NCBI GenBank assembly: GCA_030248215.1
Contig: JASANG010003380.1
Span: forward strand, 168,501 to 232,500
Reading direction: 5' to 3'
Length of the DNA stretch: 64,000 bases
Source of the DNA: Enoplolaimus lenunculus
Taxonomy: Eukaryota > Nematoda > Enoplea > Enoplida > Thoracostomopsidae
The notes beneath the pieces are model-generated. The model was not told where the DNA came from and did not search any database. It saw only the letters and a program-made list of their open reading frames with translations. Numbering within the stretch: the first letter of the stretch is position 1; every line of letters starts with the position of its first letter. The position numbers and the translations under genes are program-made. Positions 1 through 63,298 of the stretch are shown here, piece by piece.

Positions 1-153
1 AGCATAAGCCTAAGCCAAAGCTTAAGCGTAAGAATGAGCATATTCCTAAGGCTAAGCCTAAGGCTAAGCCAAGCAAAAAACTAGTCTAAAGCTTAAACTT
101 ACTCTATTGCAGTCCAACAGAAAAACGTTCCGCTCCTGATCTTTACATGGGCC
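1..153. repeat. F1 MITE (TTAGGC interior), cut by window edge
   Basis: Right part of an F1 element. It has GCCTAA-type repeats, then a poly-A tract, the box TCTAAAGCTTAAACTTACTC, and the right end CCTGATCTTTACATGGGCC. The same order of parts recurs throughout the window. A short extra TTAGGC stretch follows at 154-170. Confidence 0.85.
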
Positions 154-369
154 GCTTAGGCTTAGGCTTAAACACATATTTTGAAATCAGTAAGCAGAAT
201 CAAACCAACGGATCTAATCCCTAAAAATCACCGTCTAGAATAATCGGTGTGTTACCATGCTAAATTTGCGCACGCTCTTGTCAGAACTGCACAGTCGGGA
301 CGACCATTTTTCCTCCAAAGTACTGTGAATATGCATGGTTTGTCTCTCCTTAATTTTACCGAAACATAT

Positions 370-442
370 GCCCACTATGGCAATCGAACCTCGGACCTCT
401 CACTCGCGAGTCAAGCGCGTTTACCCATTACACCAAGCGGCC
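370..442 (-). tRNA. tRNA-Ala(CGC)-like gene or pseudogene
   Basis: Reading the minus strand gives a 73-nt tRNA-like fold. The acceptor ends GGCCGCT and AGTGGGC pair at six of seven positions, the D stem is GTGT/ACGC, and the anticodon loop is CTCGCGA (anticodon CGC, alanine). The T arm is damaged: box B reads GGTTCGATTGCC with an extra base, so the T stem does not close. Box A (TGGTGTAATGG) is good. This is probably a tRNA pseudogene or the head of a tRNA-derived SINE rather than a working tRNA. Confidence 0.45.
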
Positions 443-610
443 GATGTTATAATTTTCTCTAAATGCTATATTATGGATCGAGATAGAGCTGAACTGAGTT
501 GTGATTTTGGGGGCTTTAAAACCAATAAATCGTCAACTTCTTTTACAGCTCTTATTAAAACTAATAGCCTTTTTCTAGCTTGTTCAGCCGCTACACGCCT
601 AATATTTTTC

Positions 611-804
611 GTCCAAGCATGTAAAGATCAGGGGCGGGACGTTTTACTGTGGGACTAAAATAGAGTATGCTTTAGCTTTAGACAAATTTTTTGTTAGGCT
701 TAGGTTTAGGCTTAGGAATATACTCATTTTAATACGCTTAGGCTTAGACTTAGGCTTAGGAATATGCTTATAATACCGTTCTGCCCCTGTTCTTTACATT
801 GGCC
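611..804. repeat. F1 MITE copy
   Basis: Left end GCATGTAAAGATCAGGGGCG, interior with several TTAGGC and AATATGCTTATAATAC blocks, right end GCCCCTGTTCTTTACATTGG. Nearly full length with both inverted ends. Confidence 0.85.
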
Positions 805-946
805 AACTTTTTGAACATAAAAAATTGTCGTTTGGGATATTGTTGTTTTGGCAATTGTCGAGTTTGGAGACAACCGGCATTTTGTATAAGTATTCTGTGG
901 CCTTTTAGAATATAATGTGTTTAGCATATACATTTATCTTACACTA

Positions 947-2637
947 ATGTTGCTTACCTCGGTACTGACTGCTATCGCTCTGCTAACTGATCCGACACAT
1001 GCGGATTATCAATCAGTTCAAGTTGGCGGACTAATCAAGTGCCCCACACTGCCAAACGCGTTGAAAAGCGTGGAAATCGAGTTGATTCATAGACCAAAAG
1101 GTATTTTAAAATTAAAAAACAACTAAAAATAATTTTTTTCATTTTAAACTTTTGTGACCGCTGTTCGAGGCATATTTCAAAATATGCGAACAAATTACAA
1201 CATTTTTATATTAAAACTTTTGGCTAAACTTATAAATCCTAATCAGGCTCGTAGCCAGCTCACCTTGCTAGGGTGGCTAAAAGTTTTTTCTGGAGTGACA
1301 TTCAGGGGTTTTAATGACTTGCAAGCAAGGTTGAAAGTTTTCTAGGGTGGCACAATTTTTGCTGCGGGCTCACAAGATTTTTCGGAAAACAAATCTTTCG
1401 TCCTTTTAAATATTATTACTTCCAATCATAACACAGTTGCGCTATAAGTTGATATCCGGCGCCATCCGGAACCGTGCGTCACCCGCACGACGTCGTCCAT
1501 CACCGTATGGTATCGTACGCAAATAACTCACGTACGATTCCGAGTAGTGACGGACGGCGTAGGACGGTGACGTACCGCGCCGTACTCACAAAAAATATAA
1601 TTAAAATTAACTAAAACTGTTACCGAATTAAGTGACGGTTTTACTTACTATGGTGCTTGGCAAAGTTTTACTTAATTTAAGCAAGCACAAAATTCTTAGC
1701 TTTACATTTACTTAAATAATCATGAAATGACTGCAGTTGTCTTACTTATTTACATTATTTAAGCGAAGATTTTCTAAATGTTTAGTACATAGTCATTTTA
1801 AAATAGTTGAAAAAATATAACTAAAACATTTTTAGTAGTGTTTTTACAGAGTAGGGATGACGGACGATGACGGAAGGCTTACGATTGACGGACGGCGATG
1901 GACAGCGCCGCACCACAAGTATAGCGCAAAACTAACAGTAACCATATTTCCAAACCTCAGCCTCAGCGTAAAGCGGATTACTAAGCCTAAGCTTATAAGT
2001 AGAAAATTTGTCTTAAAGCTTAAGCTTGCTCTATTATAGTCGCACGAAATAGACGGGTCGCCCCTCAAAATAACGGGCTTGGGTTACTATGCGCTCTTGA
2101 CTTCGTGTACAGTTTTGTGGAAAAAATTCAAAATTACGTTTACGTGGTTTGACATGGTCCATGTAATAATCAGAGTCCGAACGGTTTTCTGTGGGACTAG
2201 AAAAGAGTAAGCTTAAGCTTTAGTCTAATTTTTTTGCATGGATAGGCTAAGGCTTAGGAATACGCTTATAATACTGTTCCGCCCCTGTTGTTTACATTGG
2301 CCGTTGATATGATATCACTGTTTCAGCATTTCTATTCTCCAAAGATCTCACCATTGCAAAAAGTTTCGGAACAACTGTGGACGGAAAATTCAACATTCAA
2401 GGTTATGCTCCTGTTCAACTAAGCAACTCAATCAACCCCTATTTGATCATCAAACATGCTTGTGTTCCAGACTCGACGGCTCCGGCAGCGAAATGGTGTC
2501 GAATCTGGCAGTATAAAGTTCCCGACAAATTCATTGATTCCGGGGCATTTAATTTAGGGAGCGTAAATTTATCGGAAAAATCCTGTAAAACGTCAAACGA
2601 ACCGAAATGTTTGGGCGAGAAAAAGAACAAATGTTAG
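947..2637 (+). CDS. Secreted transthyretin-like (TTL/TTR) family protein
   Basis: Two exons, 947-1100 and 2327-2637, encode about 154 residues. Exon 1 ends one base into a codon before GTATTT. Exon 2 starts after TTTCAG with two bases that complete it. The first 20 or so residues (MLLTSVLTAIALLTDPTHAD) look like a cleaved signal peptide. Then come the TTL elements: a first strand (VQVGGLIKCP), an E-x-E-L-x-H strand, the turn TVDGKFNIQG, and a later K-V-P-D-K-F-I core with paired cysteines. TTL proteins are small secreted beta-sandwich proteins, mainly nematode-specific; some (TTR-52) bridge dying cells to phagocytes, but most have no known role. The exact paralogue cannot be told. The C-terminus is Lys/Cys-rich. 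The 1.2-kb intron is full of repeats, with an F1 MITE ending 24 bp before exon 2. Confidence 0.82.
1440..1920. other. GC-rich CGACGG/CCGTC blocks in the TTL intron
   Basis: Two islands at about 1455-1585 and 1856-1912 are far richer in G, C and CpG than their flanks. They share motifs such as GACGGACGGCG and CCGTC/GACGG in both orientations. The AT-rich 270 bp between them has palindromic ACTTAAATAA/TTATTTAAG segments. This fits a diverged inverted-repeat element whose ends are these blocks. No coding frame is supported. Confidence 0.4.
1951..2085. repeat. Degenerate F1 remnant
   Basis: Recognisable only from the F1 core (GCCTAAGC, a long A tract, CTTAAAGCTTAAGCTTGCTC) and a decayed right end GGTCGCCCCTCAAAATAACG. 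Confidence 0.5.
2156..2302. repeat. F1 MITE copy, next to an exon
   Basis: Left end GGTCCATGTAATAATCAG and right end CCCCTGTTGTTTACATTGG. The interior TTAGGC array is short (one or two units). Its right end lies 24 bp before the first base of TTL exon 2. Confidence 0.8.
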
Positions 2638-2655
2638 TGATTTTGAACATTGTTC

Positions 2656-3068
2656 GGGCACATGTAAAGATCAAGGGGCGAAACGTTTTTCTACGGGACT
2701 ACAATAGAGTAAGCTTAAATGTGTAGACTATTTATTTGCTTAGACTCAGGCTTAGGTATAAATACGTTCTTGGCTTTTGCGTAGGCTTTAGGACTTTATG
2801 CGCTTATAACACTGACGGCCCTGCTCTATACATTGGTCATTTTTTCTAAGAGTTGGCAAATAACTGTACGATGAAGGTGTTTATGCGACATCAGGGCCCA
2901 TGCATAGAACAGAGCCGGAACAGTAGCATAAGAATATCCTAAGCCTAAGCGTAAGCCTAAGCATATGGATGAGCCTATTCCTAAGCCTAAGCAAAAAAAT
3001 TAGTCTAAAACTTAAACTGACTCTATTAGTCCCTCCGAAAACGATCCGGCCCTGCTCTAAACATGGGC
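2656..3068. repeat. Two F1 MITEs, about 55 bp apart, in opposite orientation
   Basis: Copy one spans about 2656-2838 (left end CACATGTAAAGATCAAGGGG, right end CCCTGCTCTATACATTGGTC). Copy two spans about 2894-3068 (left end GGCCCATGCATAGAACAGAG, right end CCTGCTCTAAACATGGGC), with interior GCCTAAGC units reading the opposite way. They lie just past the TTL stop codon, so they may lie within or just beyond its transcript end. Confidence 0.8.
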
Positions 3069-3342
3069 GGTTGCACTCTGGTACGTGTATATAAAACGGA
3101 CTGATAAAATGTGGTTGCTGGTAGTAAAACTGAAACAAAACTGTAACAAGTCAGCGTTTTCTACGTTTATAATTAAATGATGTATATGTTTTGTTCCGGT
3201 TTAAATTTGGCCAAAATAAAATAATTCAAAAGTACGGACTGTGAATCGCAAGTCGGCTACAAATTCTTATCATAAACGACTTTCCTTCAACCCACCGGAT
3301 CGCTCATTAAACTACTGAAACAGTTTACTGCATACAAACAAT

Positions 3343-3785
3343 GGCCAATGTTACTCCAGCGTAAGAATAACCTGTACTTTAGCTTAGGCGTAAAGTCTAA
3401 GCAAAAAAGTAAAAGTTAGTTTATAGTTTTAAAGTTTACTCTCTTGCAGTCGCGGAAAAACGGTAAACCAAAAGAAGTAACATGGTCTCAATAATTATAT
3501 CCACAAAACGTCACGGCCAGTTAGATTTAGGGACGTAGCCGTAGCTATGCCTGGCGCTGATGTAAGAATGGTCTAAAACTTACCAATATTGTGTTATCAG
3601 TGCTAAGAAAAACGGACCACCGTTCTGCCCATACTATTAGCATTATACAAACTGTAAATGTTACTTTGAGGGACGCAACTGTAGTAATAGCATATTCCTT
3701 TTCTTAACCTAAATGTAAAAAAGTCCAAAGCTTAACAAAGCTGTAGTCCGGCGGAAAATCGTTATTTCCCTTTTAAGTAGCAAAG
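3343..3785. repeat. Two decayed F1-type remnants
   Basis: At 3343-3486 the ends GGCCAATGTTACT and AGTAACATGGTC mark an F1 copy with the 'GTTACT' terminal type. At about 3640-3785 the segment TAAATGTTACTTTGAGGGAC followed by the F1 core box is a second, older remnant. The rest of 3069-4348 holds nothing I can identify. Confidence 0.5.
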
Positions 3786-4348
3786 CTATGGAAACAATGA
3801 TAGGTCAATTTACTACAAATTTATATTTCAGTTCCAGTAAGTGACCAAAACAGTCGCAAGCGATCGGTTGAGACTACAGTCTTGTGTAACACTGAATTGC
3901 ATAAACTGTATTCCGGAAGTAACAACTGAAGCTTAACTCCCCACAGAATCAACATATACCCCATGGATTAAAATTTTCTTGGAAATTATATCAGCTTGCA
4001 CAGTTTTATGTCAACACCCGTGGAACCTGAGGCACATTTTGTGACCATGATTGCAAAGCTTTACGATAATAATGCATTATGTGATTTAATACGATTTTTC
4101 AGTTCATAATACCTCATATTGTTGCTACTTAAAATGGTTATAAACTTTACTTCCGCTGTCGATGTTTTGCTGTGTTCAAGAATGAACTTTCTTTTTACGA
4201 AATCATTGTCTATTTGCAGTATTATGAAATATAACGGCATTTTCACCCAGCCCAAGTGAATGTACAAATGACAGTCAATTTTAGCTATAAATCAATAAAT
4301 ATATAGTATATACTACCAGCAAGTAGCACAAGTACAAATACTGAAAAG

Positions 4349-5320: not shown

Positions 5321-5329
5321 TAAAATCAA

Positions 5330-7160
5330 ATAATTGTAATAAATCTAAGAATGAAAAAACGTAACTAATTAGGTTCTGTAACGAAAACTTTAATTCTCTG
5401 CGCATCAAAACCAGACGAAAATTTTGTTGTTTCAGAGATGAACGCAGCAAAACCTGCAACAAAATCTGTTAGTTTGCTTGCACACTCCATGCATAACATT
5501 CATTACTAGGTGTAAGGTTGTGTGGTCTTGTGCGCAATATACGTAGGTGTAATGTTAGTGCAAAGAAGTTGGTGCAATTGGACATGTTGGATTCGAACTA
5601 TTGACCTGTGGCTAACTGGGCCAACGCTCTTACCTACTGAGCTATCGCGGCAATGCTTAAACTACTTTTGCCGGCTAATATACCGTTATTCTACCAGTGT
5701 GCTAAGCTGTGTACTGCGTAGGTACTATGCAATGTGTAATATGTGTTGACTTTTTACGTCTGTGCTGTTCCAGTTGGGTGTTTTATCTTGCAACCCCTGA
5801 CACTATGCGATCCTGCCAAGCACCCTTCCATTTATAAACAAACTATAAAACGTATACCAGCCCAAGATACGTCAAACGAAACGCCCATCTAAAGGTTCAA
5901 ATCGATAGTATAAAATGTGCCCTTCCAATTAACCTGTTGTGGCTTCTCTTGTGTAACCTGCACAAGAACAAGCCTAGTTTAGCACTAGCTTTGAATTTAG
6001 GTATTCAGAAGTGCACCATACATGGTCGTACACCGAAACTACACTGTACCGAATCGGGCTTGTAGCCGAGGGGGCCAGACAGGGCTCAGCGGCCCTTGTG
6101 CAAAAATTTTGGCCCGTCCTAGAAAATGTTCAACCTTCCTTGTAAGTCAACGAAAACCCTTGTTCATCAGTCCAACAAAAGTTCTACACAAAAACGTGAG
6201 AATAACTGACAGTCTAGTGTCGTGGTTTCCCTTCTGAACTTTAAAAATAGTTATCAGTGAAACGTTTTCCATCCGATGTAATCCTTATTGAAAATCACAC
6301 ATGCAAACCAGCACATAAAATTTAGTTCTGTATATTAACAACACCAAACTTAGGCTTTACCAGAAGATTTGAAATTTTTGACTGTTAGAATGAACTTCTA
6401 ATTTGTACCGAAGTGAGTTTATGTATAATTTTAAAAATCAATGTGAAATTTTGGTGCCACCCGAACCTTCCTGTGAGCAGATAAATGCAAAATGATACGA
6501 TAATTGTTGAAATAAGTTCATCAAATGACCAACTTTGTTTGGTGTAATTGGGATCAACCATGTTTATGAATCAAATCGTTACTATAACAGCGTCAACCGG
6601 AAGATATGCGATAAACTACATTGCTAGTATGCTTTTTACGTGTTTTGTTAATCGTGTAAGAAAGGATTAGACAACGTTACGGTAGGACGTTAGAAGCCAA
6701 ATTCAATTTATAAACCGCACTGATTGTAAAGTAAGGTTTTAGGAAGTGTTTAATGATACTGAAACTATTTCTACTATACCCATTTTCTTATTTCATTTCT
6801 GAAATTGTCGAAGAATGTTCCGCTCAATACAAGTTTGATGTTTATATGGCTTTGATGGCTTTGATGCTTTGACCATTTCTGAGTATATTACCTAAGGCGT
6901 GCAGAAGTTTTGCTCTACTTATCTTGAAATTTTTCTCATGCATAACATATAGAATATATACCGTACGCTTAACAGATATTGATAAACTAGAAACAGTGCA
7001 TCGTTACTTAACACGGCGTTTACGCTAAAGGTTTAGATGTGGGATCGGAGACTAATGTCCTGGTGCGTATACAATATATCTGTAACGCACATTGTGTAGT
7101 ATATATGCTTGCTGGCAGCATACGGTCGGCATATAGTCCACGATAGAAACAATTGGAGAG
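5330..7160. other. GLRX5-COG5 intergenic region
   Basis: About 1.8 kb between the two divergent starts, so it should contain both promoters. Apart from the tRNA-like segment at 5580-5651 I see only AT-rich sequence with short, unconvincing frames. No obvious TATA box or CpG-rich core stands out. Confidence 0.5.
5580..5651 (-). repeat. tRNA-like SINE head or tRNA relic
   Basis: The minus strand has a good Pol III box A (TAGCTCAGTAGG) and box B (AGTTCGAATCC) at tRNA spacing, and a partial anticodon stem (TGGC/GCCA). The acceptor and T stems do not pair, so it is not a functional tRNA. Confidence 0.4.
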
Positions 7161-7163
7161 TGG

Positions 7164-16258: not shown

Positions 16259-16434
16259 GGTCCATGTAAAAAGATCAGAGGCGGATCGTTTTTCTGTGGG
16301 ACTAGAAAAGAGTAAGCTTCAGTTTTAGACTAATTTTTTGCATGGCTTAGGCTTAGGAATGTGATCATTGTTACACTTAGGTTGAGGCTTTTAGGAATAT
16401 GCTTATAATACAATTTCGCCCCTATTTACATCGT
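16259..16434. repeat. F1 MITE copy
   Basis: Left end GGTCCATGTAAAAAGATCAG with GTTTTTCTGTGGGACTAG, then TTAGGC units; the right end is worn (CGCCCCTATTTACATCG). Confidence 0.75.
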
Positions 16435-16446
16435 TCAACAAATTTT

Positions 16447-17351: not shown

Positions 17352-19020
17352 ATGTCATCTGATTACGTGTCAATTCCGGAGTCAGTGCTTTCGTCAATTG
17401 AACGTGATCTTGCCAGTTTAGTAAGTTTGGTTTTCGAATCTCGTGTATACCAGTAATATCGATGTCTGATTTTTCATATTTTCGGGCCGTTTTTCAGTAT
17501 ATTGTTTATTGAATCCAGGGCGTAACAGGATATCCGTTTCGGGTAATATTCGGTGTCCGTTTCCGTTTCTGTTATAGAAATAACGGAAATTCTGTTATTT
17601 TTACCTTAATAATTAGGGCTCATCAGGGTACAAACAGAAGTCTGCTTCCGGCTCCGGCAAAAAAAACGGCCTCCGGCTACGGTAAAATTTTTGCCTGAGG
17701 TTGTAGCAATTTCGGTAGTAAAATTTTGCATAACTTTGTAAAATACATCTGTTTAGCGCGTTTAGTTTTACTTTTGTCACAATTTTCAGGAAAGAATTTC
17801 CGAAATTTCGCAGAAAATTAGCGTAAAACCAAACTTCCACATATTGCAGATATTGTTTAAAATTAACTAATTAACGATTATTTTACTACCTAATTTTGCC
17901 TCACCTCCGGCTCCGGCAAGTTTCGTTGACCTCCGGCTCCAGTATTAGTCACCTCCGGTTGCACCCTGGGGCCCATGTAAAGAACAGGGGCGGAACAGTA
18001 TTATAAGCATATTCCTAAGTCTAAGCCTAAGCGTATTAAGAATGAACATACTCCTAAGCCTAACCTTAAGCCTAAGCCAAGCAAAAAATTAGTCTAAAGC
18101 TTAAGCTTACTCTTTTGTAGTCCCACGGAAAAATGTTCCGCCCCTGATCTTTACATACCCCAAAATGAGTAATAAAGCACGTATATATGTTGCAATTTTT
18201 CATTACAGGTTTGCTGCAACTATTCGAATAGAAATAAAAATAAAGCATCTTTGAAACTTTTGTACTTCAATATCCGTTTCTGTTATTTTGATCACTATCC
18301 GTTTCCGTTATTTTTACTATCCGTTCACACCCTGGTTGAAACATTATGTTTACTGATTGGCGATAGTTGCTATACGCAGCGGGGAATAAATAATTTTTTG
18401 TGTATTTATTTAAGGAAAATGCAACAACCGACGCCATTGTTGATAACGAAAACAGAGTTCCGGTATGGCATTCAATCGAAAGTCTAGAAAGAACATCTGG
18501 TGGACAATGCGCTGGAACTAGCAGCGAACCGGATGTTCTACTTGGACAAGACCAACATCAATCTTTCGACGTACAAGAGGGGCCAGACGCTTCGTCAGCA
18601 GTCGATGGTGAAAACGACGAGTATGAAGAATTTATTATTTTAGGCGAAGTTCGCGATAATCGGGCTGGAAAACTGGAGAAAACTGCTGGTTTACCGCCGT
18701 CGTTCAAAGAACACGAGACAGGAGCCTCGGGAGTTGGTCAAGGATTACCTGGAACTAAAGTTATTGGGATTGATAGTGAGCATCCTGTACTTCAGTTGGA
18801 TAAATCGATTTTTATGGGAGAATGGACGGAACCGTTAGGTACTGATTTGTTGTTTTTGAAGGATACCAAAGGAAATGAAGGGCCTAATACCAGGTTGGTT
18901 GGGTGTTCACAGCGTCGAATAGTGTTCACAAGAACGCATGTGAATAAAATTACGGAAGCGAAAGATCAGAACACAGAAGAATCTAAGAAAGGTTCGATGG
19001 TAGGTGATGAATCGAGTTGA
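17352..19020 (+). CDS. GTF3C6: General transcription factor IIIC subunit 6 (TFIIIC35-like)
   Basis: Two exons, 17352-17420 and 18415-19020, joined in phase 0 (GTAAGT ... TTTAAG), code for 224 residues; human GTF3C6 is 213. The domain lies in the middle of exon 2: an acidic lead-in (ENDEYEEFIILGEV), then TKVIGIDSEHPVLQLDKSIF, MGEWTEPLGTDLLF and QRRIVFTRTHVNKI, matching the family's 'VLGIDTE-P-LQ-D...F-GEYED-LGT...TRT' pattern of the triple-barrel fold. In TFIIIC this subunit pairs with GTF3C5 within the tau-A part that recognises box A of tRNA genes. The N-terminal 85 residues are Ser/Gln/Glu-rich and probably disordered. The 1-kb intron is almost wholly three nested or abutting repeats. Confidence 0.88.
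17624..17968. repeat. F3 MITE nested in F4
   Basis: CAGGGTACAAACAGAAGTCTG at the left and CCTCCGGTTGCACCCTG at the right, with the same middle section as at 16707-17078. Confidence 0.8.
17970..18161. repeat. F1 MITE nested in F4
   Basis: GGCCCATGTAAAGAACAGGG at the left, TCCGCCCCTGATCTTTACAT at the right, and an interior with about eight GCCTAAGC units in two blocks. Confidence 0.88.
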
Positions 19021-20759: not shown

Positions 20760-20795
20760 GCTTAGGCTTAGGCTTAGGCTTAGGCTTTTTAATAT
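20760..20795. repeat. Short interstitial TTAGGC array
   Basis: Four perfect TTAGGC units, with no F1 terminal sequence on either side. Confidence 0.8.
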
Positions 20796-21298: not shown

Positions 21299-21493
21299 GG
21301 CCAATGTAAATGACATCGGCGGAACAGTATTATAAGCATATTTCTAAGCCTAAGCCTAAGCGTAAAAATAAGCATATTCCCAAGCCTAAGCCTAAGCCTA
21401 AGCTTAACCCAAGCAAAAAATAGTCCAAAGCTTAAACTTACTCTTTTCTAGTCCCACAGAAAAACGTTCTGACCGTTGATCTCTACATGGGCC
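21299..21493. repeat. F1 MITE copy, 7 bp from a splice acceptor
   Basis: Left end GGCCAATGTAAATGACATCG, right end GACCGTTGATCTCTACATGG then GCC, interior with seven or more GCCTAAGC units. Its last base is 7 bp before the candidate exon at 21501. Confidence 0.85.
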
Positions 21494-21500
21494 ATCTTAG

Positions 21501-26903: not shown

Positions 26904-27104
26904 GGCTCATGTATAGAACAGGGCCGGATCGTTTCCCAGACGGGCTATAATAGAGTCAGTTTAAGCTTTAGACTAATTTTTTGCTTAGGCTTAGGCTTAG
27001 GCTTAGGAATAGGCTCATCCACATGCTTAGGCTTAAGCTTAGGCTTAGGCTTAGGGTTACAAATATGCTTATACTACTGTTCCGGCCCTGTTCTATACAT
27101 GGGC
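26904..27104. repeat. F1 MITE, 'TATAGAACAGGGCCGG' subtype
   Basis: Ends GGCTCATGTATAGAACAGGG and CGGCCCTGTTCTATACATGG; interior with about ten TTAGGC units in two blocks. Confidence 0.88.
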
Positions 27105-27842
27105 AGACCTTCTATACAGCGATCATGCCAATCTAAGCTGAAGTGTACAATTGACAACCAAACGCTATTTTATGCTATTATGATTCTTTAACAATTTTGT
27201 AGGATTTAGACTCCGTTTGCACCGAAATTTATTGCTTAAACCAAATTCTTCGCCAAGTTCTTTTTTTTGTAAAATTTTGAAATTCTAAAAAGTATGAATT
27301 TGTGATTTAAATATATTAATTTACCAGGTAATTTTATTTTATGCCAGATGAATTGAACCAGTTGTTTTGACGAAATTTACCTAATCAAGTATATATATTT
27401 CGAGACGAGTATTAATTTTAGTTTTGAACACGGTTAGTGTGACATGTATATTGGGTGCGCACAAGGCCGGCGCTGCGATAGTCGCCCCCATCCAAACAGG
27501 TTCAAGATGGCTTCCAATTAAATGTTTCACAACTCTTTAACTTCATGGTGCACGAAAATTTTTTAGTTTGCTAAAATGGGATCCTCAAGGGTCAGCTCTG
27601 CCAATTGGAGCGTTCGGGGGGGGGATTCCGCCTGCAATGCAAGCACGGACCAGTAAGTTCGAGTACGGTGGAAGTTTATTCTGGTAGAGGCAGCGAGACA
27701 ATTTTGCAAACTTTTTCAATATTTTGACTATTTTAATTATATAATTTCAGTGCATTTAAAAAATTTTCCAAATTTGGCTTGCAAAATTGCTTAAATATAC
27801 TAGCTAACGCATTATAAGTGCAGTTGTAAATATTGACGAGCA
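27105..27842. other. Upstream region of the LIM gene
   Basis: Expected to hold the promoter of the LIM gene. No repeats recognised. A G-run (about nine G) lies near 27620, and there is no clear TATA box close to 27843. Confidence 0.4.
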
Positions 27843-29688
27843 ATGAAGGATCCGATTTGCCATCGATGTGGCCGTCAGACGTATTTCAACGATAAAATGG
27901 GTCCGTTTAAGGACGGTACTTATTTTCATCACGGCTGTTTCAAATGTTGGATTTGTGGCACGCGACTTATTCTCAAAACGTACTTTAATAATCGCAATGA
28001 TACAACGGATATGGAGGTTAGGCATTTTCGACGTTTATTTAGGTTTTAAATGCTGAGTTTTGAGTAGCTGTATTCTGGGACCAGTGCCAGAGCAGGCTAG
28101 GGTGGGGCTCCCCAAAATTCCAATGTGGGCTCACCTAAATTCCAGGGTGGGGTTCCCCAAAATTCCAGGGTGGGGTTCCCCAAAATTCTAGGGTGGGGCT
28201 CCCCAAAATTCCAGGGTGGGGGCCCCTTGCGATAATGAAAATATTTTTCAAATTATGATGAGTATCAACGGCTGTTTTTTTGTTTAAACTCTTGTTAGGG
28301 CGGGGGTCGCTTGTTGGGATGGGCCCAGCGAAATGGGGGTATGGGGGTAGCCACTCCGGCCTTGGATGGAACACACCACGTATATCAACGAATAGTGATT
28401 GGTCTCGTGTCTTTCGAATCATTGAATGGTGAGCTTCGAAATTTAACGTCTTACATTTGATTCGCTGTAGTTTTTGAACAAATTTTTAGCACAGTAATTA
28501 ATGCATCGTTCACAATAAAAAATTTCATTTTGTCATCAAATCCGCTCGCTATAAGGTAGGGTTAACGTATGTCAATTTTCAAAATTGTCGTGCGTTAAAC
28601 TAACGCAAAAATTGCGTTAGCCCTACCGTAACAAGTGTCACAGAGCATTCATTTATTAACACGCGTTATGGTATGGTAAATGCAATTTTTGCCTTAGAGT
28701 ACGCTTAGCGTATGACTGTTTTCAAAATTGACACGTGTTACCGTACCACATAAGGTTTTCGGTGCCAAAATGAAAATATTTATTGTGAACGATGTATAGC
28801 AGAGTTGCTCTATATGCATTTCAGAATATGGGTCTACATTTTGGTTGGTTATACTCAAAAATAAACGTTTTATTTAGAAAAGTATTGTTTGGTTAGAAAA
28901 CTAAAAATTATTATCTGAAACCACCACCCGTTGGCGAAGTAGTATACTTTGATCTCTGTTGTAACTTGTCCACACACTGCAAAAAATGGTGAGTCAAAAT
29001 GACTGTCTCCAAAATAGGCTTTTCTGGAATACACGAACCCAGAATGATTTGCGTTACTGTCAAAAAACAAAGACAGAACGTGGTTCCGTGTTTACTGGAA
29101 TAGTATAAGCTTAAGCATTAGAAGAATTTTTTGGTTAGGTTTAGGCTTAGGCTTAGGTATAAGCTCATTCTTACGCTTAGACTTAGGTTTGGGCTTAGGC
29201 TTAGGAATGTGCATATACTACTGTTCCAGACCTGTTCTATACTATGTTTCGGTTACTTTTAAACAGAAAACCTGGAAATATAGCAATTTTCCAAAATCTT
29301 TATGGTTGAGCACCCAGTAAAACTTTTAGTGTTTTGTGGTTCAATTTCATGTGAATTCCCTAAGATAGCCCTACACAGAAAAAATGGCGAGTCAAATTGA
29401 ATTTCTCCGAAGTAGGCTCTACGGGACTATACAAACCGAGTCCAACTCCATTCCGCCAAATTCAAACATGCGACTCAGTGAATCAAATTTGACTCTGGCG
29501 GAGTCGAATTTGACTTAGTTTGTGTAGTCCCGTAGAGCCTATTTCGGAGAGAGTCAATATGAGTCACCATTTTTTGCAGTGTAGAGCGAGTTAAACTGTT
29601 CTAAATCGCAGTTGGTTTTCAGGTTTACTGCAGCGCCCACGTGCCAACTCCTGGACCGCACGACCCCATTCCACATCGATCGAATTTG
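27843..29688 (+). CDS. LIM-domain protein, first two exons (3' part not found)
   Basis: Exon 1 (27843-28016) and exon 2 (29623-29688) join in phase 0 across GTTAGG...TTTCAG to give a complete LIM zinc-binding domain from residue 6: CHRC, then FHHGC, FKCWIC, and finally YCSAH from exon 2. The linker DGTYFHHGC...GTRLILKTYFNN and the tail HVPTPGPHDP resemble the single LIM domain at the N-terminus of LIM-transglutaminase-like proteins (ltd-1/Hillarin type), but this is from memory and weak. Exon 2 ends TTG before GTATTT, so more exons must follow; none could be identified downstream. LIM domains bind partner proteins, often at actin structures. The intron carries a 23-bp tandem repeat, a short MITE, F1 and F2 copies. 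Confidence 0.7.
28095..28230. repeat. 23-bp tandem repeat, about 5.5 units
   Basis: Unit AGGGTGGGGCTCCCCAAAAT plus TCC, each unit containing a GGGG/CCCC palindrome. Lies 80 bp after LIM exon 1. Confidence 0.85.
28504..28794. repeat. Short MITE with CATCGTTCACAATAAA ends
   Basis: Inverted ends CATCGTTCACAATAAA and TTTATTGTGAACGATG. The interior has a second inverted pair (GGTAGGGTTAACGTATG / GCGTTAGCCCTACC and GTACCACA). A TA on the right side suits a TA target. Confidence 0.7.
28975..29581. repeat. F2 fragment, F1 copy and full F2 copy in a row
   Basis: 28975-29035 is one F2 arm only. 29058-29250 is an F1 copy with worn ends (GTTCCAGACCTGTTCTATAC at the right) and many TTAGGC units. 29374-29581 is a full F2 copy, ending 41 bp before LIM exon 2. 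Confidence 0.75.
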
Positions 29689-32451: not shown

Positions 32452-32789
32452 TTTCTTAGGCTTATTCATAAACGTAGGCTTAGGAATATGCTTATACTAC
32501 TGTAACGGCCCTGTTCTATGCCATTGGTCCTTTTTCTTAATTATAAAACTATCGAAAAATCTCCAAATGGTTTATTTTTAGATTTATTTATGCTGCTTAA
32601 AGAAAAACTGATCATTTGAAGTTTCCCATCCCGGAAATATTCTGCTAATTTCGGCCAATGTGACTTTTAGGGGCGCAACAGTATATTAAGAGTATTCCTA
32701 AACCTAAGCAAAAAACGTAATTAGAATCTAAACCTGCTCTTTTATGGGCCCACCAGAAACCTGGACGCCCCTTAAATTACCATGAGCCC
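32452..32789. repeat. F1 right half and a second small F1 copy
   Basis: 32452-32526 is the right half of the 'CGGCCCTGTTCTATG' subtype. 32653-32789 is a compact copy of the 'ATGTGACTTTTAGGGGCG' subtype with only one or two telomeric units. Confidence 0.7.
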
Positions 32790-33268: not shown

Positions 33269-33731
33269 GGCCAATGTATAGAACATGACTGGAACAGCAG
33301 TATAAGCATATTTGTAAGCCTAAGCCGTGGCTTAAGCCTAAGTCTAAGCGTAAGAATGAGCTTATACCTAAGCCTAAGCCTAAGCCCGTGGTTTAAGCCT
33401 AAGACTAAGCGTAAGAATGAGCTTATACCTAAGCCTAAGCCTAAGCCTAAGTCCGTGGCTTAAGCCTAAGTCTAAGCGTAAGAATGAGCTTATACCTAAG
33501 CCTAAGCCTAAGCCTAAGCCCGTGGGTTAAGCCTAAGTCTAAGCGTAAGAATGAGCTTATACCTAAGCCTAAGCTTAAGCCCGTGGCTTAAGCCTAAGTC
33601 TAAGCGTAATGAGCTTATACCTAAGCCTAAGTCTAAGCCTAAGCGTAATCAAAAAAAATTAGTTTAAAACGTAAGCGTACTCTATTACAGTCAAGCTGGA
33701 AAACGTTCGGGTCATGTTCTATACATGGGCC
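33269..33731. repeat. F1 MITE with an expanded 60-70-bp interior tandem repeat
   Basis: Ordinary F1 ends (GGCCAATGTATAGAACATG, TGTTCTATACATGGGCC), but the centre is a tandem array of about five units, each GTGGCTTAAGCCTAAGTCTA + AGCGTAAGAATGAGCTTATA + CCTAAGCC(TAAGCC)n. Units differ mainly in the number of GCCTAA copies, so repeats of two sizes are nested. Confidence 0.9.
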
Positions 33732-35879: not shown

Positions 35880-36110
35880 TTTTCTAAAAAATATCAAAGA
35901 TGTTAATTGAATCTTATCATGTAGCGTTTCTAAAAAATATCAAAGATGTTAATTGAATCTTATCATGTAGCGTTTCTAAAAAATATCAAAGATGTTAATT
36001 GAATCTTATCATGTAGCGTTTCTAAAAAATATCAAAGATGTTAATTGAATCTTATCATGTAGCGTTTCTAAAAAATATCAAAGATGTTAATTGAATCTTA
36101 TCATGTAGCG
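35880..36110. repeat. 46-bp minisatellite, five identical units
   Basis: Unit TTTCTAAAAAATATCAAAGA + TGTTAATTGAATCTTATCAT + GTAGCG, repeated five times with no visible mismatch, ending directly at an F1 MITE. Confidence 0.95.
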
Positions 36111-36120: not shown

Positions 36121-36262
36121 AAACACGGCGTCCAGGTTTCGGATGGGTCCATAAAAGAGCACGTTTAGAATCTAGATTACATTTTTTGCTTAGGCTTAGG
36201 CTTAGGCTAAGGCTTAGGAATACGCTTAATATACTGTTATTCCCCTTAAAGTAACATTGGCC
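36121..36262. repeat. F1 MITE, 'GGCGTCCAGG' subtype
   Basis: GGCGTCCAGGTTTCGGATGG at the left (outermost bases replaced by the minisatellite), TTAGGC units, TCCCCTTAAAGTAACATTGG at the right. Confidence 0.8.
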
Positions 36263-38025: not shown

Positions 38026-38175
38026 GGTCCATGTATAAAACATGGCCAGAACAGTAGTATAAGCATATTTCTAAGCCTAAGCCTAAGCCTACGCAAAAAA
38101 TTATAGTCTAAAGCTTAAACTAAATCTATTATAGCGCCTGTGGAAAACCATTCGGCCCTGTTCTATACATGGGTC
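38026..38175. repeat. F1 MITE, compact copy
   Basis: GGTCCATGTATAAAACATGG and GGCCCTGTTCTATACATGGG ends around a single block of three GCCTAA units. Confidence 0.85.
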
Positions 38176-40999: not shown

Positions 41000-41325
41000 T
41001 ACCTACAAACGAAAGGTATCTACCCGTATGGGTAATAGCTAGCTACAATTATTTGTATAGGTTGTTTCAAGCTCCTGCTATGAGTAGGTGACAAAAGAGG
41101 TACCAAACGCACAAATGGTAAACCTACCCGTATGGGTAATAGCTAGCTATCATTATTTATATAGGTTGTTTCTAACTCTTGCTATGAGTAGGTGACAAAA
41201 GAGGTACCAAACGCACAATTGGTAAACCTACCCGTATGGGTAATAGCTAGCTATCATTATTTATATAGGTTGTTTCTAACTCCTGCTATGAGTAGGTGAC
41301 AAAAGAGGTACCAAACGCACAATTG
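41000..41325. repeat. 104-bp tandem repeat, about three units
   Basis: Period 104 bp: the word ACCCGTATGGGTAATAGCTA starts at about 41023, 41127 and 41231. Each unit holds two small palindromes, ACCCGTATGGGT-like and TAGCTAGCTA. Ends 25 bp from the stop codon of the large minus-strand gene, so on that strand it lies in the 3' UTR or just past it. Confidence 0.92.
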
Positions 41326-41350: not shown

Positions 41351-53642
<12,292 letters not shown>

Positions 53643-53789
53643 TGTTTATGGTGAAATAATTAATGTTTGAAAGCCAGGAATGCCTGAAATTTTTACAGCG
53701 ACACCAGAGGGTGAGTTCATATTGACGCGTTTTTTACAGCTCCTATAAGCTCAAATTAGTAATCCCTTTGACTCCGCTCAGTGCTGATA

Positions 53790-54039: not shown

Positions 54040-54650
54040 GGCCAACGTGTAGAACAGGACAGGAACAGTAGTGTAAGCATATTCCTAAGCCTAAGCCTAA
54101 GCCTAAGCCTAGTGTATTGACCCGAATAAGAGGGGGGGACTGTTATTTATTTGGCCTCTCCAGAGGGTACCCCCCTTGTTATTCGGTTACGGACTGTAAT
54201 TTATTTTTAACCCATGCTCCGCCGCCCTTCGTTACTGATATATATCGATTACTGCAACTATCCGTTGAATTAAAGGTTTATTTGTCTCGTTTCAATAGTT
54301 TGAGCGAAAATAAAAGGTTATACTTAGGAATGTACTTTGAAAATTTAAGTACACTTTAAAGTTTCGAACTCAAATTATTTGGTCGTGGAGTCATTTATGT
54401 GCTACAATTAGGGTTAATTGACATTTATGGGCTCTAATTAGGGTTTAGGGCCTCTATCCGCTTACGGACTCTCATTAGGGATACGGACTCCTATTGATTC
54501 GAACCCAAAATGGATACCCCCTTATTAACCCCCTCTTATTCGGGTCAATACAGTAAGCCTAAGTCTATGCAAAAGAATTAGTTTAAAGCTTAAGCTTACT
54601 CTATTACAGTCACGCCGGGAAACGTTTCGGCCAGGTTCTATACATGGGCC
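54040..54650. repeat. F1 MITE interrupted by an F5 element
   Basis: F1 ends GGCCAACGTGTAGAACAGG and CAGGTTCTATACATGGGCC enclose GCCTAAGC units that are split by the F5 insertion at 54112-54553. Removing the insert and one TA restores a normal F1. Confidence 0.9.
54112..54553. mobile_element. F5 Tc1-like MITE nested in F1
   Basis: 442 bp with inverted ends GTGTATTGACCCGAATAAGA / CTGTATTGACCCGAATAAGA and TA duplicated on both sides (54110-54111, 54554-54555). TA duplication and end type fit Tc1/mariner. No transposase frame, so it depends on one elsewhere. Confidence 0.88.
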
Positions 54651-55871: not shown

Positions 55872-56130
55872 GGTCAATGTAAAGAACAGGGGCGGAACAG
55901 TATTATAAAGCATAAAGCCAATGCCTAAGTCTAAGCCTAAGTCAAGAACAAAAATCAGTCTAAAGCTTAAGCTTACTCTGTTCCAGTCCAACAGACATAG
56001 TCTTCACTCTCGATCTTTTACATGGGCCGAGTCCCTAAACTATAATTAGAGTGAGTCCATAAATGTCAATTATTCCTAATTATAGTACATAAAATGTCTC
56101 CAGGACCAAATAAAGTTGAGTTGGAAACTT
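55872..56130. repeat. F1 copy followed by an F5 fragment
   Basis: 55872-56028 is an F1 (GGTCAATGTAAAGAACAGGG ... TCGATCTTTTACATGGGCC). Directly after it, 56028-56130 has the inner F5 words GTCCATAAATGTCAATTATT and GGACCAAATAAAGTTGAGTT, then an F1 left end fragment (CCCATGTATAGAACAGGGG). Confidence 0.75.
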
Positions 56131-56966: not shown

Positions 56967-57246
56967 TATTCTACAAATTCGGCATGCATCCGCCATGATA
57001 CCGTTGAGCATAAATTTGTTCATTTTGATTCTTTGCTGACTGACTGGATCAGACGCCGGGACATGGGTGTTTTGGTTAACAAATAGCAAAAAAATATTCA
57101 AAAGCCCATGCAAAGTGAGGGGAAACAATGTTGATCCTGTAGAGCATCATGTGTCTGGCCTATGCCCGACGTTAGGGAAGTATAGGTAGTTGTTGTTCAT
57201 TATCACTTATAGCTTTTCTCGGCAAAGTCAGCCATCGACAAGACAT

Positions 57247-58315: not shown

Positions 58316-58439
58316 GTCTTCCTTCTACGCACAACACGCAAATGAAAGACCATATCATCTGTGGGTCATCCACGTTAAAATGCACGCACATTTATAAAAA
58401 ATGTCCCTCCCTTTTGGGTGCCCGCGTTGTCCCTACCCA

Positions 58440-58880: not shown

Positions 58881-59455
58881 TTGAATGTACTCCTGGTACA
58901 TTGCTGTCCCTGGAAAATGGGACGGGTACTCCTGGTACATTTCTGTCCCGGGAATACGGGACGGTCTTTAAAGTAACATTGGCCCTGTTCCAAATGGGGT
59001 GGGTGGGACATTTATATTACATCGGTGCGTGCATTTCAACGTGGATGACCCACTGTATTGCGCGGACTATTTTGTACAGCGGCGACTATCTGTGCGAGAG
59101 CAGGGTGTAGGCACTGTAAAAACCAACAGATAAAACCGGTTTTCTGGTTTCTCTGTTCTTCCGAAGGCGTGGAGAAATGCAAATGCGGAAGAAAACTTTT
59201 ATAAAAACATGTTTATCATTGCAAATAAAACTTGCGTAGCGACAAAACGTAGCGGTAAAAACTGTAAAAAATTGGTTTTTCGCATACTTTCCATACGGAA
59301 TATGTTTCGCTTTACGTGTCTGACAGGGGCCTGATTTTAATACCAGATCTTGTAGCCGTATGATTGGATATAAGTTATTGATCATTGTGTTCACTGTTTT
59401 ATGCGGTGTTCACGTTATAACTGGGGCAGCCAGGAACACGTTTTGTCCCTATGAC

Positions 59456-59657
59456 GGCCCATGTTACTTTAAGGGGCGTCCAGGTTTCTGGTCGGTCTAA
59501 AAGAGTAGGTCTAGCTTTTAGATTACATTTTTTGCTTAGTATTAGGCTTAGGCTTAGCCTTAATAGACTTAGGAACTTATTGTTGCAACGCAAGGCTTAG
59601 GCTTAGGCTTAGGAATACGCTTAATCTACTGTTACGCCCCTTAAAGTAACATTGGCC
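59456..59657. repeat. F1 MITE, complete 'GTTACTTTAAGGGGCGTCC' subtype
   Basis: Best example of this subtype: GGCCCATGTTACTTTAAGGG and CGCCCCTTAAAGTAACATTG form long inverted ends around TTAGGC blocks. A related right end with CCGGGAAATTGGGACG lies at 59796-59852. Confidence 0.9.
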
Positions 59658-60129
59658 GCTATAACGATAGCTGGTAACATTTTGTCTGACCGTTTATCCG
59701 CTATCAGTTTCAAAAGATTTGAGTTGTCTGCTAAGGTTATATCCTACGTAAATATATCTGCCTGTGCATATGTAAACAGGAGCGCATAAGTGTGCACTCC
59801 TGGTATATTTGTGTTCCGGGAAATTGGGACGTCCTTTATAGTAACATGGGCCATAGTATTGATACTGAACATCTTATCGTAACTACTTTAGTGTTTTCAG
59901 GGCCATTAGGTTTTTAATTTACGTAGCTAGTATTTTTAAGGGTACACGTCAATTGGGAGGAATTATTGGGATATTTGCGAACATGTTAAGTGCACGTCGT
60001 TGAGCAATGAACTATGAGCACACACTAAGATGGCTGAGGGTTTGAAGAGACCGCCTCTCCAACTACTTTAATCGTTAATTAAATATTTGCCGGCACGTAT
60101 TTCTCCGGCTAGCATACCTTAAAAAGCAT

Positions 60130-60510
60130 CCGGATGCGACCGAATATCCGGAATTTGGCAAAAATCGACATCAGGTCCTGGTGGTTAACTTGCCGGATGT
60201 TTTTGAATCCTGAAAAATTGAAAACGTCATTTGTACTTATGTCAAGTGGCAACTCCAATATAACTGATTGACTTACTTTAACATTTTTACTGTCATACGA
60301 GACTTGTAAATGTTTGCATAAGCTCGTGTACGTTTACAATTTTCATTGGGTTACAATAACACTGAAAAATTTGATAATGATGATCAATGTTATTTTAGGG
60401 GAGTATACAACTGTATCTCAGTGTAATCCTTTTCCTACGCCTAAACCTAAACTTCACAATGAAAATAAGTTTAAAACAAAGCCTTCGCGTAAGCGAAAAT
60501 TATAGCCTTA
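60130..60510. repeat. Dispersed repeat, partner of 7520-7960
   Basis: GACCGAATATCCGGAATTTG start, GTACGTTTACAATTTTCATT and GGTTACAATAACACTG words, then CGCCTAAACCTAAAC units and AAAATTATAGCC end, as in the COG5 intron copy. Confidence 0.55.
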
Positions 60511-60744
60511 TTCCTATGTTGCTTTTATTTTATAGTACTTCTTGAAAATTGGATGCCCTTGAAAGTTGTTGTTAGATCTTTTTAAAAGTTGGCAAAACTA
60601 TTTTATGACCTTCTATTGACATCATAGACATTCCAATATGTAATAACGTGTCTTTAATCCTATGAAAATCGATGGGTAATAACGCATGAAGCTGTTTTTA
60701 TTTTTATTCATGTCCACAATCATTCCGATCATTCTGGATGTGTT

Positions 60745-62944
60745 ATGATGTCTCTGCACAAATCGAAAGGTATGAATATGTTAATTAGAAACAGTTTAGT
60801 TAGCTATTACGCAGTATTAATAGAATGTGTAGTTGTTAGCAGGAAAACAACAGAGTTAAAGAATTTCATTACGTATCAGTACCATTTCATGGTGGTAGAT
60901 GTAACTGCGTTAAACATTGCAAAAGCTACCGTTTTATTTATAGGTTGTGAACAAGAAGAAGATGACAACATTCGACTGCTCAAAGAGCTAAAGAAAGAGG
61001 TTTGTCTAATTATAGCAGCTTTTGCGTTATATGTAGGTATGTTACATGTTGCTCCAGAACTTATCAGGAGATAGGGACTTCAAGTTCAGCTGTGTTATTA
61101 GTATGTAATCAATCGTGCAAAACGGTTCAATGCTAGAGGTAATTCAGTCGTGTTGAGTTGCTAGAGGTAGATGCTGCAATTCGTTGTCTCTAAATGTGTA
61201 TGTCTTGTGTTATGACTACGATGTTTTCAGGTAAAGCAAATAATGGAAGAAGCTGTGACGCGCAAGTTTGTGAATGAGGAAAGCAGTTCAGTAACATCTT
61301 TGTGCTGTAAGTTGTACCCAAAAATGAATAAATGATAAATTTCTGTTTCATAATAGCTATGGTGCTAGTTATGAGTACATAGTAGCGTAGTTTTATTTAT
61401 TGGTATTATGAAACTGCGAACTATTATTTAGCAGGTACCAAATGTTTGACCGGCTGTTTTATTGTGTTTCTGGCAAAAGACTAAATTTTAGTTCAAGTTC
61501 TACATAGGTAAAAAATACCTACTATAATCTGCGAGTAGGATTTAATTTTAAAATATCATTAGGAGATATATTGTCTATAATTCATTTTTTGCGCCTAAAT
61601 TAAAAAGGTATATACGTATGTGTGTTGAATACAATATATGAATTACCTGTTACTCTCTGAATATTGCGTATTGGAACGAGTTTGTGTGTTATTTTTAGCA
61701 GCAATTGATGCTGTACTCCTGTACGGTCTCAAAAAGCGTGTTCTCGGACTCTTCGGTCCAGCGTCTACGTTTGGTTTATTGCATAAAATATCGAAAATGT
61801 GCCCTCCTGCAGCATCAATTGTTAAAATGGTCCTCGATATACAGCAAGCGCAGTTTAAGCAAAATCGGTACGTAAGCACTGGTAAACTCAATGTACAAAT
61901 CGCTTTAGATACTTCATGGTGAATTTTGTCGGCAACCTCAATATACAAATGGCGTTAGTCATGGTGAATTTTGTCTGATGACTGTGAATCTGCGCTTATT
62001 TCCTGCATTTATTTAAAATATTTTTAATGAGACGCGCACGTGATAGAGCTTTCAGGGGCCACGTTTTCCACTCAGTTATGTATAAGCTTTATGCATGGGC
62101 GCAGAAGCGATCTTACTACGGGGTCTCATACACGAGGCGTCATAAATAACAGCGAAAGAAGCTTCGAAAACGAAGTAAGTGATGTCTAACTCAATTTTAG
62201 TAATTGGTAAACGTAGGGACCTTATATACTATTTTTATAAAACTTTCATTTTTATGGTTTGGTTATGCAATATTTTCTGCGGGCATATATTAGGGGTACA
62301 TTTCTGAAGGTGTTGTCGCGCCGATGGCATTATGGTTTGTATCCGCTATATCATGTTGTTATAGTTTGTTTGGATCATCGATTACTGATTTTGACGGCAG
62401 CCTTAGGGGTGACGGCTCTCGACGGAATAACGCGTTTTCAAATACGTCTCCAGACAGTCTGGCTTTAGCGCCGATCAATATGCGTTTCTTGTGGATTCGA
62501 CTTGCTTTATTCGAAAAAGTCCTCAATTCAATTGTTGATTATATATTTCGGAATGCAAGGCAAGTAGTTTCAGATGAATTGAAAACACGGAATCAACTTT
62601 AGCTGTGTATAATAGGAGATATACTTGTGAACTTGCCCCACATTTTTATTGGAGTGAACGCGTTTAGATCGAAACACAATTTTTTATTAAAGAGTAGTGG
62701 ACGCTATTTGTAAAATAAGTGCTGTGGCGGAATTTGTTCAACGAAAAGGGTTTGTATAACAAAAAATTTGAAAATTATTGGTTACGTATATGGGAATTGT
62801 CAATACGTAAGCTGTAATAGTCTAAACTGGAAAGAGAAATGCAACTAGGATGATAAGAGAAATGTTCAATTTTTAGCCGGTACTACGAGAAAGGAGCGGT
62901 AATGTTGGATCCAGTAATGGGAAGTATGGTTGCGACACTGTTGG
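60745..62944 (+). CDS. RUN-TBC RabGAP of SGSM type, first six exons (3' end off window)
   Basis: Exons 60745-60769, 60944-60999, 61231-61306, 61699-61867, 62365-62559 and 62877-62944 join in frame to about 196 residues. The match to SGSM1/2 (C. elegans tbc-8) runs throughout: LLKELKKE + VKQIMEEAVTRKFVNEESS across exons 2-3; the RUN-domain start AIDAVLLYGLKKRVLGLF and LLHKISKMCPPAASI in exon 4; FLWIRLALFEKVLNSIVDYI in exon 5; RYYEKGAVMLDPVMGS in exon 6. The family has an N-terminal RUN domain binding Rab/Rap GTPases and a C-terminal TBC GAP domain; tbc-8 acts on Rab2 in dense-core vesicle maturation. The window ends inside the RUN domain. Intron 5 starts GCAAGT, so it is a GC-AG intron. Exon 5 may start at 62365 or about 38 residues' worth of bases differently; the two acceptors share phase. 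The tiny first exon is the least certain. Confidence 0.85.
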
Positions 62945-63116
62945 GTAAGTAGACTCGAGCTTATAATTGATGGTTTGTGTTGTTCAAGTTGCACTTCAAT
63001 TAACAGTCTTAACCAATGGCACTGCATGGCACCGGAATGTTTTTAAAACTCTTGGCCTCTTGGAATTTTATACATACTCTCAAACAGTATTTCCGAGACC
63101 AAAATGTTACAATTTT

Positions 63117-63298
63117 GGCCTATGTATAGATGAAGGACGGAGCTGTTTTCCATGGGACTACAATAGAGTAAGATTTAGACTAATGTTTTGTTTATGCTTG
63201 ATTAGGTTTAGTTCTAAGCTTATCGTTACGTTTTGGCTTAGACTTATTTTTAGGAATACATTTATACCACTTTTACGGCCATGTTCTTTACATTTGTT
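63117..63298. repeat. F1 MITE, worn copy in SGSM intron
   Basis: GGCCTATGTATAGATGAAGG and ACGGCCATGTTCTTTACATT ends with decayed TTAGG-like units (GATTAGGTTTAG, TTGGCTTAG). Confidence 0.7.

What the first reader, a model, noticed from the sequence alone, without database searches (positions are those of the whole stretch)
1..63298. A MITE family built around nematode telomere repeat
More than 25 short elements share inverted ends (GGCCCATGTA..., ...TACATGGGCC or TACATTGGCC) and an interior of GCCTAA/TTAGGC units in one or two blocks, separated by an AATATGCTTAT-type spacer. TTAGGC is the nematode telomere unit. Unit number varies from one (38026) to about 17 (41811-41917). Seen directly: the repeated structure. 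Inference: a non-autonomous DNA transposon captured or evolved telomere repeat and now spreads it through gene-rich DNA. Such sites could bind telomere proteins, act as seeds for new telomeres after breakage (important in lineages with chromatin diminution), or expand by slippage. I know of no named nematode family with this build.
Basis: partly seen in the sequence, partly recalled or inferred. Interest (0 to 1): 0.8.

Follow-up and report, generated by a model that had tools for sequence, protein, structure and literature searches.

The report
Jumping elements that carry telomere repeats
A very abundant family of short mobile DNA elements in a nematode genome carries blocks of the worm telomere repeat between its ends and has scattered that repeat through the chromosomes, which gives one concrete source for telomere-like DNA found far from chromosome ends.

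Summary
The window has 21 paired elements plus 14 unpaired ends (E<0.1). Ends are 27-nt inverted repeats starting GGCC, in three subfamilies. GCCTAA blocks run left to right beside 152 of 177 ends (2 opposite, 23 nil). Insertion is by transposition: target duplication is 8 bp (21 of 49 end pairs match at 7 or more of 8; shuffles mean 0.48, maximum 3), and paralogous empty sites were seen for two elements, one in the window. Genome-wide, 50,807 ends match within 2 mismatches (control 5) and 28,806 left arms run into two telomere units (control 0). In 110 kb of blind loci, 28 of 42 blocks of two or more units lie in or at elements, 11 in one minisatellite made of element interior, 3 free. Longer free arrays exist elsewhere. 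Terminal GG and 8-bp duplications fit Merlin transposons, present here, but none of 15 Merlin loci has these ends. Telomere origin, protein binding and a role in breakage are not shown. New variant of a known kind.

The parts
42376..42625 (-). element with exact 8-bp target duplication GAAACTTG, 7 GCCTAA units
55872..56028 (+). A-type element inserted in another repeat; empty site seen in other copies of that repeat (flanks GAGTTTCT / GAGTCCCT, the 8-mer once in the two empty copies displayed)
32653..32788 (+). C-type element, flanks CTAATTTC / CAAATTTC, no exact GCCTAA
31132..31314 (+). C-type element, flanks GATAATTA / GATAATTG, 2 units
59456..59657 (-). C-type element, flanks CCTATGAC / GCTATAAC (6 of 8), 4 units
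41702..41963 (-). A-type element with 14 perfect units in a row, 16 in all; arms 5.7% from consensus
33269..33731 (+). B-type element, 17 units, spacer-plus-block repeated about five times
54040..54650 (+). B-type element interrupted by another repeat at about 54112-54553
26904..27105 (-). B-type element, two blocks, 6 units
38026..38175 (+). B-type element, one block of 2 units
17970..18161 (+). A-type element, 3 units
21299..21493 (+). A-type element, two blocks, 5 units
614..804 (-). A-type element, 4 units
2156..2302 (-). element without an exact unit
2657..2838 (-). element without an exact unit
2895..3069 (+). B-type element, 3 units
3657..3774 (+). short, weak element, no exact unit
16259..16426 (-). 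element, 1 unit
29068..29242 (-). B-like element, 3 units
36127..36262 (-). C-type element, 3 units
63117..63298 (-). element without an exact unit
73..153 (+). unpaired right end (element cut by the window start, preceded by GCCTAA-like units)

Best explanation
This is a MITE family, a non-autonomous cut-and-paste DNA transposon, most likely moved by a Merlin-type transposase. Shown: 27-nt inverted ends starting GGCC, a nearly fixed left-to-right polarity, 8-bp target duplications, two clean paralogous empty sites, three subfamilies and at least tens of thousands of ends, with GCCTAA (nematode telomere C-strand) blocks between a conserved left arm and a conserved right arm. Inferred: a transposase acts in trans on the ends; each jump carries a short block of telomere units to a new site; there the block decays by point mutation and in some copies is lengthened again in place, probably by replication slippage, which gives runs of 65 and 78 perfect units. 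The family is thereby a main source of short interstitial telomere blocks in this genome, judged from samples.
For: 8-bp duplication: 21 of 49 end pairs at 7 or more of 8, shuffles mean 0.48 and maximum 3; 8 exact against a shuffle mean of 0.12; at lengths 9-12 no pair has one mismatch or fewer. Empty sites for window 55872-56028 and L020:2879-3089. Ends 25,368 + 25,439 at 2 or fewer mismatches, control 4 + 1. Left arm joined to two units 14,424 + 14,382 at 3 or fewer mismatches, control 0 + 0. Polarity: 152 of 177 ends agree, 2 against, 23 nil. Blind loci: 28 of 42 blocks of two or more units in or at elements, 11 in a minisatellite made of element interior, 3 free. Consensus for A, B and C with the same layout. 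In-place renewal: a 65-unit perfect run in an element whose arms are 6.6% from consensus (chance of staying intact 2.6e-12); perfect-run length falls with arm divergence (Spearman -0.45, p 5e-5, n 75 distinct elements). Merlin: terminal GG and 8- or 9-bp duplications (PMC8101967, passages); 15 Merlin transposase matches in this genome, three of which sit in elements with GG ends and exact 8-bp duplications.
Against: 0 of 15 Merlin loci are bracketed by the GGCC ends (two of the 15 loci are short, 2,395 and 2,043 bases). Their own ends, where found, read GGC(G/A)AAGG or GGTGAAGG; the likeness to the A-type left end is only 11 of 15 first bases (shuffle p 0.006, the best of eight comparisons; C-type 7 of 15, p 0.19). 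No long element with these ends and a target duplication was found in the held DNA. 28 of 49 end pairs have fewer than 7 of 8 matching bases, as expected for old copies but not proved. 9 of 75 distinct elements hold no exact unit. Free TTAGGC arrays outside elements exist (L018, L019, L025, window 20762): of four contigs with runs of 24 or more units that I looked at, two runs are at elements and two are free. The polarity test uses profiles built from elements of these same loci that I had oriented by their units, so it is not fully independent.
Confidence: 0.75

Rival explanations
1. The hexamer blocks were put in by telomerase, or by repair with telomere DNA, at chromosome breaks, as for ordinary interstitial telomere sequences; the flanking repeats are incidental.
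For: Arrays without any element ends exist in the same genome: L018:4749-5150, L019:4720-4977, L025:59-154, L025:6108-6253, window 20762-20785.
Against: 28,806 genome places join the same left arm to the units; polarity relative to the arms is nearly fixed; target duplications flank the whole element, not the array. It may still explain the free arrays.
Confidence: 0.06
2. It is a MITE, but the hexamer has nothing to do with telomeres: TAAGC-like motifs are subterminal transposase-binding repeats that expanded, and match the telomere unit by coincidence.
For: TAAGC-like motifs also stand outside the blocks, in the left arm (TATAAGCATATT) and right arm (GCTTAAGCTTACTC) of A. Degenerate units are common in the blocks: GCG 42, ACC 25, GTC 22 against GCC 308. 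Other Merlin families carry unrelated internal tandem repeats, one with 6-bp units (PMC8101967, passages).
Against: TTAGGC is the commonest period-6 class in the window, blind and Merlin loci (57 TRF rows, next class 11), though the elements themselves contribute to that. No direct test of origin was possible.
Confidence: 0.35
3. It is moved by a hAT transposase, which also makes 8-bp duplications (recalled).
For: 8-bp duplication; 45 matches to the hAT dimerisation domain in the genome.
Against: hAT ends usually read C/T-A-x-x-G (recalled, no call); these read GGCC.
Confidence: 0.15

Closest known systems
Merlin / IS1016 superfamily DNA transposons and their MITEs (PMC8101967, passages read)
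   Same: Terminal GG, 8-bp target duplications, inverted ends of at least 24 bp; internal tandem repeats reported in several Merlin families, one with 6-bp units.
   Different: The passages seen report no family with telomere units. No transposase with these ends was found here. The only copy numbers in the passages seen are small (over 100 copies in one genome).
Interstitial telomere sequence tracts of C. elegans and other nematodes (PMC9071541, passages read)
   Same: TTAGGC tracts inside chromosomes, often degenerate.
   Different: The review gives 1,229 tracts in C. elegans and calls their abundance unexplained; here most short blocks in the samples sit in one transposon family.
Small elements with a tandem-repeat core that seed satellites (pearl, recalled; DINE-1 and Tetris, seen only as titles and abstract starts)
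   Same: Tandem units between conserved ends, variable unit number, spill-over into longer tandem arrays (here L028:9163-9990); the likeness is recalled, not tested.
   Different: The core unit here is the telomere repeat of nematodes.

Membership tests
MITE | short element, too short for a transposase, with terminal inverted repeats | tested here: met
   median length 195 bp of 75 distinct elements; 27-nt ends
MITE | target site duplication of fixed length | tested here: met
   8 bp, 21 of 49 pairs at 7 or more of 8, shuffle mean 0.48
MITE | clean empty sites | tested here: met
   two elements with paralogous empty sites; alleles or strains not available
MITE | high copy number | tested here: met
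   50,807 ends at 2 or fewer mismatches, control 5
Merlin superfamily | 8- or 9-bp target duplication | tested here: met
   definition from PMC8101967
Merlin superfamily | terminal GG, inverted ends of 24 bp or more | tested here: met
   definition
Merlin superfamily | related autonomous copy with DDE_Tnp_IS1595 transposase and the same ends | tested here: inconclusive
   15 matches found, a lower bound; 0 bracketed by these ends within the up to 1.5 kb of flank held; a partner may be lost or unassembled
hAT superfamily | 8-bp duplication | tested here: met
hAT superfamily | ends of the type C/T-A-x-x-G (recalled) | tested here: not met
   ends read GGCC
Interstitial telomere sequence | host telomere unit in internal chromosome positions | tested here: inconclusive
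   internal position shown; that TTAGGC caps this species' chromosomes is taken from the phylum (PMC9071541), not shown here
Interstitial telomere sequence | bound by telomere proteins or acting as template | not testable with these tools
   needs ChIP or a telomerase-null strain

The most novel reading that the evidence does not exclude
A transposon family captured the host's telomere repeat, keeps it as part of its mobile unit, and has laid down tens of thousands of polar telomere blocks that telomere proteins bind and that can serve as templates or landing sites for new telomeres after breakage, so that one selfish element has shaped where chromosomes can be healed or fused.
Probability: 0.12. 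Interest if true: 0.9.

Novelty: new variant of a known kind. Interest (0 to 1): 0.62.

Why it matters
[quoted passage not shown] Here a clear physical cause is visible in one genome: a cut-and-paste element carries many of the tracts. That makes testable predictions about tract position, polarity and age, and about telomere protein binding at tens of thousands of mappable sites.

Tried and rejected
Target duplication of 4 bp (GGCC itself as the duplication): rejected, since GGCC belongs to the end and 8 bp outside it match (42376-42625 and others). Autonomous element in the held DNA: of 165 end pairs 280-9500 bp apart only two had matching 8-mers, both short elements (604 and 534 bp). Merlin loci as partners: 14 of 15 hold no such end, and L050 holds one single end that does not bracket the transposase. 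Long TTAGGC arrays as true chromosome ends: the four contigs listed with 24 or more units carry them internally (only the first 100 of 865 places were listed). L033:3287-3717, one element inside another, was at first taken as a third empty site; the inner copy lacks the outer part of its left end, so it is not a clean case. Opposite-strand profile hits mostly vanished when overlapping hits were reduced to the best. L022 and L023 overlap by 1,000 bases, so searches count one element and two ends twice; one search recounts without them. Published precedent: searches in the held open-access library gave no listing that describes a MITE carrying TTAGGC; of the listed papers only passages of PMC9071541 and PMC12132450 were read for this, so full texts were not excluded. 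Species could not be named: the 18S search did not complete.
Full report
What was checked. The window is 64,000 bases of contig C87 of a 296 Mb assembly in 3,185 contigs. The assembly is very probably a nematode: 116 matches to the cuticle collagen domain Col_cuticle_N, which I recall as nematode-specific; the tool's 14 control genomes had none, but I do not know that they include other animals. Exons of COG5, API5 and TFIIIC6 lie in the window. The species is not known. That TTAGGC is the telomere unit is taken from the phylum (PMC9071541, passages); I could not show it at chromosome ends here, because the four contigs listed with arrays of 24 or more units hold them internally, only the first 100 of 865 places were listed, and the telomerase search did not complete.

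Anatomy. Each element begins and ends with a 27-nt inverted repeat starting GGCC. Three subfamilies are clear: A (GGCCAATGTAAAGAACAGGGGCGGAAC), B (GGCCCATGTATAGAACAGGGCCGGAAC) and C (GGCCAATGTTACTTTTAGGGGCGTAAC). All share one layout: left end, AACAGTA...TAAGC-TATTCCTAAGCC, one or two GCCTAA blocks with a spacer, then a right arm, then the right end. Of 177 distinct ends found by profile at E<1e-3 in the window and 20 loci, the block beside the end runs in the same sense in 152, in the opposite sense in 2, and is absent or tied in 23 (one search gives 154 of 179 with an overlap counted twice). The profiles were built from elements of these loci that I had oriented by their units, so this is not a fully independent test. 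Of 75 distinct chained elements, 42 are A, 19 B and 14 C; 66 hold at least one exact unit, 9 none; the median length is 195 bp.

Movement. In 49 end pairs (7 or fewer mismatches in each end) the 8 bases outside the two ends agree at 7 or more positions in 21 pairs, and exactly in 8; shuffled pairing gives means of 0.48 (maximum 3 in 200 shuffles) and 0.12. Lengths 2 to 6 and 9 to 12 do not rise above the range of the shuffles in mean identity; 7 is somewhat raised. The other 28 pairs do not reach 7 of 8, which fits old copies: arms differ from their consensus by 9.7% at the median. Joining the flanks and looking for unfilled relatives gave two clean empty sites, both paralogous. Window 55872-56028 lies in a dispersed repeat; 12 alignments to unfilled copies span the junction, with about 20 bases on the left side, and the two that were displayed carry the 8-mer once, without a gap at the junction, where the filled site has GAGTTTCT and GAGTCCCT. 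L020:2879-3089 (flanks GTAGACTG and GTCGATTG) has an empty relative in L032 with GTCGATTG once. At L033:3287-3717 one element sits inside another, but the inner copy lacks the outer part of its left end, so this is not a clean case.

Numbers. The end pattern occurs 25,368 + 25,439 times at 2 or fewer mismatches; read backwards, 4 + 1. The left arm followed by two units occurs 14,424 + 14,382 times at 3 or fewer mismatches, control 0 + 0. In 11 blind loci (110 kb, picked by contig number) there are 23 left and 35 right ends at E<1e-3, which would scale to roughly 62,000-94,000 in the genome, and elements cover 5.5%; the window is richer, 8.2%. The blind sample is small and uneven (from 0 to 7 chained elements per locus), so this is an order of magnitude.

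How much of the telomere repeat is carried by the family. Blocks of two or more units: window 16 of 18 in or at elements. Blind loci 28 of 42; 11 of the other 14 are in one minisatellite at L028:9163-9990 whose unit is the element's own spacer plus block, and 3 are free. If every block of one unit or more is counted, fewer are tied: 56 of 86 in the window and 81 of 169 in the blind loci. In the nine loci that I chose because they held arrays of three or more units, 21 of 31 distinct blocks of that size are at elements, and the other 10 belong to four free arrays. So the family is a main source of short blocks in these samples but not the only source of long arrays; of four contigs with runs of 24 or more units looked at, two have the run at an element and two have it free.

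Renewal of the block. Perfect runs get shorter as arms diverge (Spearman -0.45, p 5e-5, n 75; -0.42 without the two longest), as expected if the block arrives with the element and decays. But L020:4745-5348 has 65 perfect units while its arms are 6.6% diverged; the chance that such a run stayed intact is about 2.6e-12. A 78-unit run sits beside a left end at L017:4391-4858. The longest runs must therefore have grown or been homogenised after insertion; slippage is the simplest cause, and recombination or telomerase is not excluded.

Which transposase. Terminal GG and an 8- or 9-bp duplication are given as features of Merlin (PMC8101967, passages). The genome holds at least 15 Merlin transposase matches; three sit in elements with GG ends and exact 8-bp duplications, and two of these are 99% identical over 1,883 bases, so Merlin has probably been active lately. 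None of the 15 is bracketed by the GGCC ends. The A-type left end shares 11 of its first 15 bases with the local Merlin end (shuffle p 0.006), B-type 10 (p 0.014), A-type right end 9 (p 0.06), C-type 7 (p 0.19); over 26 bases p runs from 0.01 to 0.08. The 15-base cut was chosen after looking, so this is a hint only. hAT, the other common 8-bp class, has ends of another type (recalled), and its loci could not be read. I file the family as a MITE and as Merlin-like, not as a proven Merlin.

Telomere origin. The unit equals the nematode telomere unit exactly and is in the consensus of all three subfamilies, so it probably predates their split. TAAGC-like motifs in both arms allow another reading, that subterminal motifs expanded and happen to match. 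I cannot decide between capture and coincidence. Binding by telomere proteins and seeding of new telomeres are untested ideas; in Ascaris and Parascaris a single nucleotide of telomere homology is described as an optimal target of telomerase at new ends (PMC9071541), so long blocks may not be needed there.

Verdict. A real, abundant and well-defined transposon family with an unusual cargo. It gives a direct cause for the spread of many interstitial telomere blocks in one nematode, a point that the review calls unexplained for metazoans. Searches of the held open-access library listed no description of such a family, but few of the listed texts were read, a paper on tracts in Caenorhabditis cited by the review is not held, and repeat databases such as Repbase or Dfam could not be searched.

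Noticed in passing
window about 54112-54553: Another repeat interrupts the telomere block of the B-type element 54040-54650, at CCTA|GTGTATTGACCC...GGGTCAATACAG|TAAGCC; TA may be its target duplication. It shares sequence with the repeat in which the element at 55872 is inserted.
   Followed up: partly
L028:9163-9990: A minisatellite built from the element's own interior (spacer AGCGTAGGAATGAGCATATG plus GCCTAA units), a MITE core turned into a tandem array.
   Followed up: partly
L018:4749-5150, L019:4720-4977, L025:59-154 and 6108-6253, window 20762-20785: TTAGGC arrays with no element ends nearby; L018 mixes GCCTAG, GCCTAA and GTCTAA units in a recurring order.
   Followed up: no
L041:235-2381, L045:326-2380, L047:267-2137: Merlin elements with inverted ends and exact 8-bp duplications; L041 and L045 are 99% identical over 1,883 bases, so probably recently active.
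   Followed up: partly
window 35881-36110: Five identical copies (100%) of a 46-bp tandem unit, a recent amplification or assembly effect.
   Followed up: no
window 41020-41325: 104-bp unit in 2.9 copies at 96%.
   Followed up: no
window 42635-48034 (-) and 50919-53645 (-): Two long open frames (1,799 and 908 aa, stop to stop) with long runs of Q (both) and of N and H (the first), no Pfam match.
   Followed up: partly
genome G000: Only 12 matches to the major sperm protein domain, which seems few for a nematode (recalled) and may hint at the clade.
   Followed up: no
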